Source: Thermoplasmata archaeon (GTDB taxonomy: Archaea > Thermoplasmatota > Thermoplasmata > Lutacidiplasmatales > UBA184). Taken from it: 35,988 nt of DNA. The notes beneath the pieces are model-generated. The model was not told the origin of the DNA. It saw nothing but the letters and a program-made list of their open reading frames with translations, and searched no databases. Both the position numbers and the translations under genes were made by a program. The first letter of the stretch is position 1; every line of letters begins with the position of its first letter. The stretch lies in contig JASHTB010000021.1 of assembly GCA_030040775.1 (NCBI GenBank), positions 1-35,988 on the forward strand. The letters run 5' to 3'. Shown one piece after another: positions 29,298-32,416 of this stretch.

Positions 29298-29400
29298 TAG
29301 CGGGGCATGGATTTGAACCATGGATCTACGGGTTATGAGCCCGTCGGGATTTCAGGACGGCCGGCGCTCCCGGCCGTTTTCCTGACTACCCTACCCCGCT
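29298..29400 (-). tRNA. Initiator tRNA-Met (CAU), intron-containing; CCA not encoded
   Basis: Minus strand AGCGGGG TA GGGTAGTCAGGAA[28-nt insert]ATCCC G ACGGG CTCATAA CCCGT AGATC CATGG TTCAAAT CCATG CCCCGCT A; perfect acceptor, anticodon and T stems; A1-U72 and GGG/CCC anticodon-stem pairs are initiator hallmarks. Confidence 0.95.
29351..29378 (-). other. 28-nt D-loop tRNA intron with bulge-helix-bulge motif
   Basis: CAGG-AAA-ACGGCCGG-gagcg-CCGGCCGT-CCTG-AAA-TCCC: 4-bp central helix (CAGG/CCTG), two 3-nt bulges (AAA/AAA), 8-bp distal helix; excision yields a 75-nt tRNA with a normal D-loop. Confidence 0.85.
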
Positions 29401-29468
29401 GCGGCGCGGCAGAGGAGGACGGATTATTTAGGACCTGTGCCGCGCGCGCTTACCGGCGGACGTCCGGT

Positions 29469-30374
29469 TCAGTGCGGACGGCTCAGGTCCTCGAGCTCGC
29501 GCTGAAGGAGTCGGTCCCAATCGGCCCGCACCTGGCGCTGGACCGTCTCCTCGTCTTCGGTCGTGAAGTGGTGGAATCGTCCCTGGGCGCGAAGGTACTC
29601 GGCCACCGGTTTCAGCTGTCCGCTCTTTCGGGTAATCCTCAACCGGCCTTCCACGATCTCGTAGAGGGGGAAAACGCCGGAGTCGGTCGCCAGACGGCCG
29701 AGCGCGATCGTCTCCGAGGAGTCGAACTTCCACCCCGGCGGACAGGGGGCGAAGATGTCCAGGAACCTCGGGCCGACCAGATCCCGGGCGCGCTCGACCT
29801 TCCGGTCGAAGTCCTCGGGGAACGCCGGATTGAGCGTCGCTGCGTAGACCGGCCGGTGGGCGAGGACGATCGCCATCACGTCCTTCTTCCCCTCCGGCTT
29901 CCCCCGGTGCCCTCCGAGGGTCGGGGTCGTCGTCGTCCACGCGCCCCACGGCGTCGCCCCGCTGCGCTGGATGCCGGTGTTCATGTACGCCTCGTTGTCG
30001 TACATCACGTAGATCGCGTTGGTCCGGCGCTCCAGCATCCCGCTCAGCGCCTGCAGGCCGATGTCCGCGGTCCCTCCGTCTCCGGCGAACCCGACGATCG
30101 TCACGTCCTTCAACCCGAGCGCGTCGGCGGCGGCGCGGAGTCCCGAGATCGACGCGCCGGTCGCCTCGATGGGGTTGTCGAGCATGCCGACTCGCAGTGC
30201 GGTCGTCGGGTACGGCGTAGCGATCACGGTCCAACAACACGCCGGGACCGAGACGATCGTTCGGGGACCGAGGCCTTTCAGGAGGAGGCGCATCGCGAGG
30301 GCCGGGCCACACCCCGGGCACGCCGCGTGTCCTCCGTAGACGAGCTCCTCGGCCGGGATGGTCAGCTTAGCCAT
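29469..30374 (-). CDS. 2-oxoacid:ferredoxin oxidoreductase beta subunit (PorB/VorB-like)
   Basis: GGHAACPGCGPALAMRLLLKGLG, TIVGFAGDGGTADIGLQALSGMLERRTNAIYVMYDNEAYMNTGIQRS (TPP-binding), CPPGWKF; SD AGGAGGT 8 nt upstream of ATG. Confidence 0.93.
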   Translation of the reverse strand: MAKLTIPAEELVYGGHAACPGCGPALAMRLLLKGLGPRTIVSVPACCWTVIATPYPTTALRVGMLDNPIEATGASISGLRAAADALGLKDVTIVGFAGDGGTADIGLQALSGMLERRTNAIYVMYDNEAYMNTGIQRSGATPWGAWTTTTPTLGGHRGKPEGKKDVMAIVLAHRPVYAATLNPAFPEDFDRKVERARDLVGPRFLDIFAPCPPGWKFDSSETIALGRLATDSGVFPLYEIVEGRLRITRKSGQLKPVAEYLRAQGRFHHFTTEDEETVQRQVRADWDRLLQRELEDLSRPH

Positions 30375-31558: not shown

Positions 31559-32416
31559 CTATGCCTCCGCTGCCACCATCTCGATCGTCTTCGGCGGGCA
31601 TTCGGCCGCACAGATCCCGCATCCCTTGCAGAACTCGAGCCGGATCGCGGGGTAGCCCTTCGCGTCGAACACGATCGCGTCGTCCGGGCAGAACTTCCAG
31701 CAGAAGTTGCACTTCGTGCATCGCTCAAGGTGGATGACCGGGGTGAACGTCCGCCAGGCCGCGGTCGGGGTCGACTCGCTCGAAACCGAAGCGATCGGTC
31801 CCTCCGGGAGGGGAATCGGGGCAGTCGGAGGTCGGGGGGCGACCGGCGCGGGCAGTGCTCCGGTCTCGACCGTCCTCACGGTCGTGTAGCCTTCCCTCGC
31901 CGCGAGGCGGTTCTCCTCAGGACTCCGAGGCACGAACTCGTCGATCGCTCGGCCGAGCGCCTCGAGGGAGACCACGCCGGTCGCCCGGGCGAGGGCGCCA
32001 AGGAGGGCCGTGTTGACGATCGGGAGCATCGGCGTGCCGAGCCCGTGGGCGAGCGCGATCCGTGTCGCATCGACCGTGCCCCGGCGCACCTCGGCCGGAG
32101 CGACCAGGGATTCGGCGGGCCGCGGCGTGTTGACGAGAAGGAGGCCCCCGGGCCGGATCCCCTCGGTGACGCGGGTCGTCTTGAGGAGCCCCGGGTCGAG
32201 CACGACCACGACGTCCGGAGTGGTGATGGAGGTGCGCACCGGAATCGGTCGGTCGTCGATCCGGGTGTAGGCCGTCACCGGAGCGCCCCGCCGTTCGACC
32301 CCGAAGAACGGGAAGCTCTGCGGCACCCGACCGTCCCGGAAAGCAGCCTGAGCGAGAAGCTCCGACGCGACGACCGCGCCCTGCCCTCCCCGACCGTGAA
32401 ACCGAATCTCGATCAT
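31559..32416 (-). CDS. 2-oxoacid:ferredoxin oxidoreductase gamma-delta fusion (gamma domain + 2x[4Fe-4S] ferredoxin domain)
   Basis: [29 protein letters not shown]...[17 protein letters not shown], linker, then [16 protein letters not shown]...[19 protein letters not shown]. Confidence 0.93.

What the first reader, a model, noticed from the sequence alone, without database searches (positions are those of the whole stretch)
29298..29400. Initiator tRNA-Met interrupted by a 28-nt D-loop intron with a canonical bulge-helix-bulge
The minus-strand tRNA is perfect in the acceptor, anticodon and T arms, but 28 extra nt sit in the D-loop. They fold with the flanks as CAGG-AAA-ACGGCCGG-gagcg-CCGGCCGT-CCTG-AAA-TCCC: a 4-bp central helix flanked by two 3-nt bulges on opposite strands, the archaeal splicing endonuclease substrate. 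Cutting between nt 2 and 3 of each bulge removes 29351-29378 and joins ...GGAA|ATCCC, giving a 75-nt tRNA with a normal initiator D-loop. Most archaeal tRNA introns lie at 37/38. Non-canonical positions are best known from Thermoproteota, so one in the D-loop of initiator tRNA in a euryarchaeal-type genome is unusual. It may also break gene calling or give a falsely missing tRNA-iMet.
Basis: partly seen in the sequence, partly recalled or inferred. Interest (0 to 1): 0.85.

Follow-up and report, generated by a model that had tools for sequence, protein, structure and literature searches.

The report
D-loop intron in archaeal initiator tRNA
The start-codon tRNA gene of this soil archaeon is interrupted by a short 28-base intron in an unusual place, shared by at least 60 related species and accompanied by many other oddly placed tRNA introns, although the organism's splicing enzyme is of the type thought to tolerate only ordinary introns.

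Summary
Minus strand 29400-29298 is an initiator tRNA-Met gene with a 28-nt insert (29378-29351) in the D-loop. Removing it gives a 75-nt tRNA that differs at 2-3 positions from intron-free iMet genes of relatives. The genome belongs to the Thermoplasmata order Lutacidiplasmatales. The same interrupted gene is in 44 of 300 sampled class genomes, only in three genera of one family, and never beside an intact copy. In 45 aligned genes the exons are almost invariant; the intron hairpin shows compensatory changes. It is therefore a real, single-copy, conserved BHB-type tRNA intron. Two corrections: the motif is relaxed (the 3' bulge lies in an internal loop), and the gene is not isolated. In a near-complete sister genome at least 15 of about 40 tRNA genes carry 17 non-canonical introns (13 T-loop, 4 D-loop). 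Their endonuclease is a fused alpha'2-type EndA without the crenarchaeal or ARMAN loop linked to broad specificity. Introns at this D-loop position, with unrelated bodies, also occur in three other Thermoplasmata families. The kind of element is known; the lineage, its intron load and its pairing with this enzyme were not found described. Splicing itself is inferred; no RNA data were available.

The parts
29298..29400 (-). initiator tRNA-Met(CAU) gene, precursor of 103 nt
   Evidence: sequence; A1:U72 pair, GGG/CCC anticodon stem, CTCATAA loop; 65 distinct homologues; spliced form called tRNA-Met(CAT) by ARAGORN
29379..29400 (-). 5' exon (22 nt: acceptor 5' strand, D-stem, D-loop to position 20a)
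   Evidence: invariant in 45 genes except position 9 (A or G) and position 22, the last exon base (A, once T)
29351..29378 (-). 28-nt D-loop intron (20a/21)
   Evidence: absent from iMet genes of sister genera and of the same order; length varies 26-32 nt among relatives
29298..29350 (-). 3' exon (53 nt: A21 to discriminator A73; no encoded CCA)
   Evidence: invariant in 45 genes; no CCA encoded in any of 65
29381..29384 (-). central helix, 5' strand CAGG (exon)
   Evidence: pairs with 29353-29356; invariant in 45 genes; TAGG/CCTA in family f18
29353..29356 (-). central helix, 3' strand CCTG (intron)
   Evidence: as above
29378..29380 (-). 5' bulge AAA, predicted cut 29379|29378
   Evidence: conserved bulge; rule of cleavage between bulge nt 2 and 3 (PMC4307357)
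29350..29352 (-). 3' AAA, predicted cut 29351|29350; lies in an internal loop, not a strict bulge
   Evidence: invariant AAA; fold
29357..29377 (-). intron hairpin: 8-bp inner helix and 5-nt loop
   Evidence: 6 of 8 pairs show changes on both sides, 94.2% of cells paired, 0/500 shuffles as high
29335..29337 (-). anticodon CAT
   Evidence: sequence
29425..29429 (-). TATA-box-like AAATA, 25-29 nt upstream of the mature 5' end
   Evidence: AT-rich block at -29 to -25 conserved over 64 upstream regions

Best explanation
This is a functional, single-copy initiator tRNA-Met gene with a BHB-family archaeal tRNA intron at the non-canonical D-loop position 20a/21. Transcribed from its own TATA box, the precursor folds into the cloverleaf with a hairpin rising from the D-loop. 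The fused alpha'2-type EndA cuts between nt 2 and 3 of the two AAA stretches, releasing 28 nt, and RtcB joins the exons, restoring the D-loop AGUCAGGAAA. The splice signal is a relaxed bulge-helix-internal-loop motif. The intron entered, or was kept, once at the base of three genera of one Lutacidiplasmatales family, and belongs to a genome-wide set of D- and T-loop introns. Shown: gene, structure, conservation, covariation, absence of intact copies, enzyme genes. Inferred: transcription, cutting and joining, and that EndA rather than another enzyme cuts.
For: Exact anatomy. Same gene in 32 of 36 genus relatives and in 44 of 300 class genomes, all in genera g1, g25 and g29 of family f1. Exons nearly invariant while the intron drifts with compensatory changes: 6 pairs changed on both sides, 20 such cells against 5.9 in shuffles, 0/500 as high. 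Intron-free iMet genes of sister genera and order relatives match the spliced product to within 2-3 nt. No intact copy in own or relative genomes. Conserved TATA box. One EndA gene with two PF02778+PF01974 units and one RtcB gene per genome. One origin on the EndA tree, support 99/96. Introns at the same position in families f13, f17 and f18 with unrelated bodies and a compensated central helix.
Against: No RNA evidence. alpha'2 enzymes are described as narrow (PMC6379350, PMC4033280, PMC12397907), although A. fulgidus alpha'2 cuts BHL introns at 37/38 in full pre-tRNA (PMC6379350) and homodimeric EndA is said to cut BHL-like motifs (PMC8707768). Four of 36 genus relatives show no iMet 3' half at all, most simply assembly gaps.
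Confidence: 0.9

Rival explanations
1. The insert is not removed: the mature initiator tRNA carries an enlarged D-loop hairpin.
For: The insert forms a very stable hairpin and is kept by a whole clade.
Against: Inside it mainly splice-motif bases are conserved, the loop is free to vary and length varies 26-32 nt. Position and bulge geometry fit the EndA cutting rule. Sister genera have the normal D-loop.
Confidence: 0.04
2. A decayed or duplicated iMet pseudogene, with the working copy elsewhere.
For: The own genome is only about 82% complete.
Against: Exons are invariant in 45 species, no other copy is found even in relatives of 93-100% estimated completeness, and a promoter-like block is conserved.
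Confidence: 0.02
3. The intron is cut by an enzyme other than EndA, or needs an unknown helper that widens the specificity of the alpha'2 EndA.
For: EndA lacks the CSL/ASL loop, the motif is relaxed, and the D-loop introns examined lack a directly adjacent outer helix.
Against: The fused EndA keeps the catalytic region and is the only one found. Published alpha'2 enzymes can cut BHL substrates in some contexts (PMC6379350, PMC8707768).
Confidence: 0.1

Closest known systems
D-arm introns of crenarchaeal tRNAs (Sulfolobus tokodaii tRNA-Glu, Aeropyrum pernix tRNA-Thr(UGU); PMC4307357)
   Same: BHB-like intron inside the D-arm; cuts between bulge nt 2 and 3; cutting by EndA shown in vitro for these
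   Different: Other tRNAs, Thermoproteota hosts with (alpha-beta)2 EndA; here iMet in Thermoplasmata with alpha'2 EndA and no experiment
Non-canonical tRNA introns of Thermoproteales and Nitrososphaeria (PMC8450103, PMC4090602)
   Same: Many introns per genome at D-, T-loop and other positions; position 20/21 is on the published list; some tRNAs hold two introns
   Different: Those lineages carry heterotetrameric EndA; not reported for Thermoplasmata in the papers read
Atabeyarchaeia and Freyarchaeia tRNA introns (PMC11291895)
   Same: Uncultured soil archaea with very many non-canonical tRNA introns, often several per gene
   Different: Asgard phylum; their EndA was not compared here
Other interrupted archaeal iMet genes: permuted in Thermofilum pendens, split at 37/38 in Nanoarchaeum equitans (PMC3218864)
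   Same: iMet gene disrupted and rebuilt through BHB processing
   Different: Permuted or trans-spliced at other positions; here a plain cis intron at 20a/21
alpha'2-type EndA (Archaeoglobus fulgidus 1RLV, Thermoplasma acidophilum 2OHC, Ferroplasma acidarmanus)
   Same: One gene, two fused units, C-terminal unit catalytic, no CSL/ASL
   Different: Here paired with many non-canonical introns

Membership tests
archaeal BHB-type tRNA intron | removal restores a normal tRNA | tested here: met
   75-nt product, 2-3 differences from intron-free relatives; ARAGORN calls Met(CAT)
archaeal BHB-type tRNA intron | central helix of about 4 bp between 5' exon and intron | tested here: met
   CAGG/CCTG in all 45 aligned genes; TAGG/CCTA in f18
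archaeal BHB-type tRNA intron | strict hBHBh': 3-nt bulges on both sides with outer helix stacked on the central helix (required only of the strict form) | tested here: not met
   5' bulge strict; 3' AAA lies in an internal loop facing U13-U16; the motif is the relaxed variant, which the literature includes in the family (PMC6379350)
archaeal BHB-type tRNA intron | cut by EndA between bulge nt 2 and 3 and exons joined | not testable with these tools
   needs RNA or enzyme; EndA and RtcB genes present
canonical (37/38) tRNA intron | position 37/38 | tested here: not met
   intron at 20a/21 in the D-loop
alpha'2-type EndA | single gene, two fused N+C units, only the C-terminal unit catalytic | tested here: met
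   two PF02778 and two PF01974 stretches in one 354-aa ORF; no further PF01974 match; GFKYG...H...VRK motif in the C-terminal half
broad-specificity EndA with CSL/ASL loop | extra loop with Lys beside the active site of the catalytic unit | tested here: not met
   about 10 residues shorter than A. pernix at the CSL in all 22 genomes aligned

The most novel reading that the evidence does not exclude
Lutacidiplasmatales are an undescribed intron-rich lineage in which a loop-less alpha'2 EndA alone processes at least 17 D- and T-loop introns per genome. That would break the accepted link between EndA architecture and non-canonical introns, and imply a different route to broad specificity.
Probability: 0.5. 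Interest if true: 0.68.

Novelty: new member of a known kind. Interest (0 to 1): 0.5.

Why it matters
Reviews state that euryarchaea with alpha4 or alpha'2 EndA have few introns, only with BHB motifs at the canonical position (PMC4090602), and that broad substrate range came with extra loops (PMC12397907). Here a single-copy, presumably essential tRNA depends on a relaxed non-canonical intron with a loop-less alpha'2 enzyme, in a genome with many such introns. That makes the enzyme-substrate co-evolution model directly testable with one purified protein and one transcript. In practice, initiator and many other tRNA genes of this order can be missed by tools that do not model D- or T-loop introns.

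Tried and rejected
ARAGORN, default and with introns, fails on the precursor. A first strict tRNA finder found few genes and was replaced. Missing iMet genes in some relatives were checked for other introns and are simply absent from the assemblies. Weak Rfam hits to mir-483 and a Moco riboswitch near the gene are below threshold and taken as noise. T-loop pattern hits outside family f1 are mostly without hairpin and near the reversed-pattern background. No structure prediction was run: the EndA type is clear from domains and alignment.

Full report
Observation. The minus strand at 29400-29298 reads AGCGGGG-TA-GGG-UAGU-CAGG-AA|28 nt|A-U-CCC-G-ACGGG-CUCAUAA-CCCGU-AGAUC-CAUGG-UUCAAAU-CCAUG-CCCCGCU-A. 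A1:U72, the three G:C pairs next to the anticodon loop and the CAU anticodon mark an initiator tRNA-Met. The insert is 29378-29351, between positions 20a and 21. The precursor folds at -54.7 kcal/mol against -36.2 +/- 3.4 for shuffles. ARAGORN finds no tRNA in the window, and the Rfam tRNA model stays below its cut-off.

Host. The window is a whole contig of a 1.46-Mb, 82%-complete genome. A scan of named genomes for iMet genes with a D-loop insert gave 75 records. Nearly all are titled 'Thermoplasmata archaeon', and one is 'Candidatus Lutacidiplasma silvani', the type genus of Lutacidiplasmatales (PMC9287336). That paper does not mention introns.

Conservation. Thirty-two of 36 genus relatives hold the interrupted gene. 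In 300 genomes of the class the pattern occurs in 44, all in three genera of family f1. Sixty-five distinct precursors have introns of 26-32 nt, and 28 is commonest. In the 45 genes with a 28-nt intron the exons are invariant but for position 9 and one base at position 22. Inside the intron only the splice-motif bases and a few helix bases are fixed. The inner helix shows changes on both sides in 6 of 8 pairs, with 20 such cells against 5.9 in shuffles and 0 of 500 as high; sliding the partners drops pairing from 98.5% to under 50%. An AT-rich block at -29 to -25 is conserved upstream. This is the signature of a functional gene with a structured, removable intron.

Comparison with intron-free genes. 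Four sister genera of the same family (g24, g26, g27, g28) have iMet without the intron. The spliced window sequence differs from one of them at 2 of 75 positions (both in the D-loop, at 20 and 20a), and from an intron-free gene of the same order (L049) at 3. No genome with the interrupted gene was seen to carry an intact copy beside it, including relative G018, almost all of which was read. On an EndA tree the intron-bearing genera form one clade (support 99/96), so one gain there, or one loss in the sister clade, suffices.

Same site elsewhere. Three further Thermoplasmata families (f13, f17, f18) have iMet introns at the identical position but with unrelated bodies of 31, 48 and 35 nt. In f18 the central helix is TAGG/CCTA instead of CAGG/CCTG, a compensated exon-intron pair. 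Whether this is one old intron or repeated insertion at one site is open. Two Lokiarchaeota and one Bathyarchaeota record also have D-loop inserts in iMet.

Motif type. The 5' one is real. On the 3' side AAA is not opposite a continuous strand: the exon bases U13-A14-G15-U16 lie between D-stem and central helix, and the minimum-energy fold pairs U16 with the first A. The motif is therefore the relaxed BHL/HBh' form.

Wider picture. In G018 (94% complete; all but about 42 kb of contig C5 read) a custom finder together with ARAGORN recovered about 40 tRNA genes. Eleven have 30-35-nt inserts in the T-loop at 59/60: Glu-CTC, Gln-CTG, Ser-GCT, Ser-GGA, Ala-GGC, Asp-GTC, His-GTG, Asn-GTT, Gly-TCC, Arg-TCG, Arg-TCT. 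Arg-GCG has a 33-nt D-loop intron. Lys-TTT and Leu-TAG each have both a D-loop and a T-loop intron, read by eye from the sequence; that version of the search gave no hit on the reversed genome. With iMet that makes 15 genes and 17 non-canonical introns, besides 37/38-type introns in Tyr, elongator Met and Leu-TAA. In the T-loop introns the T-stem is the outer helix and the central helix has mostly 3-4 bp. The own genome shows a T-loop insert in Asn-GTT, although its central helix is weaker in the assumed register. A T-loop signature is common across family f1 and close to background elsewhere.

Enzymes. Each of 22 genomes has two PF01974 matches, in all complete cases within one open frame. 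The own protein is 354 aa with two PF02778 and two PF01974 units, and is similar by sequence to M. kandleri, A. pernix and A. fulgidus EndA. Aligned with A. pernix, all 22 lack the loop DVEKPRGADFEG that holds K44. This is alpha'2 architecture, described as narrow (PMC6379350, PMC4033280) because it lacks the loop (PMC12397907), although BHL cleavage by homodimers has been reported in some contexts (PMC6379350, PMC8707768). RtcB is present.

Mechanism. Most likely: transcription from the TATA box, folding, EndA cuts at 29379|29378 and 29351|29350, RtcB ligation, CCA addition (none encoded in 65 genes). Gene, structure, conservation and enzyme genes are shown. The reaction is inferred from the cutting rule demonstrated for crenarchaeal D-arm introns (PMC4307357).

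Verdict. The element is a new member of a known kind: non-canonical BHB tRNA introns, with 20/21 among the published positions (PMC4090602). What is unexpected is where it sits: a single-copy initiator tRNA of a Thermoplasmata order loaded with D- and T-loop introns and served by a loop-less alpha'2 EndA. I found no description of this in the open papers searched; most subscription papers are not in that library.

Noticed in passing
L361 (G018:C4:11850-12030, -) and L314 4753 (+): tRNA-Leu(TAG) and tRNA-Lys(TTT) of sister genome G018 each carry a D-loop and a T-loop intron.
   Followed up: partly
L323, L325, L326, L328, L334, L344, L345, L357, L361, L296, L312 (G018): Eleven further tRNA genes carry 30-35-nt T-loop introns at 59/60, a genome-wide feature of this lineage.
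   Followed up: yes
L006 (own genome, contig C45): The window's own genome has a tRNA-Asn(GTT) with a 32-nt T-loop insert next to a tRNA(CAT) that resembles tRNA-Ile2.
   Followed up: partly
L110 882-950 and L167 2143-2210: Records titled Acidobacteriaceae bacterium and 'bacterium' hold the Lutacidiplasmatales iMet gene; the L110 gene is the same as in Thermoplasmata MAG L141, so these contigs are probably mis-binned.
   Followed up: partly
L067 (G058, family f11): iMet gene with a 13-nt insert next to the anticodon, apparently a canonical 37/38 intron, in another Thermoplasmata family.
   Followed up: no
L109, L127 (Lokiarchaeota), L165 (Bathyarchaeota): iMet genes of other archaeal phyla with D-loop inserts near the same position.
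   Followed up: partly
window 29469-30374 (-) and 31559-32416 (-): Genes with a TPP-binding domain and with POR plus 4Fe-4S domains lie upstream of the tRNA on the same strand, like parts of a 2-oxoacid:ferredoxin oxidoreductase operon.
   Followed up: partly
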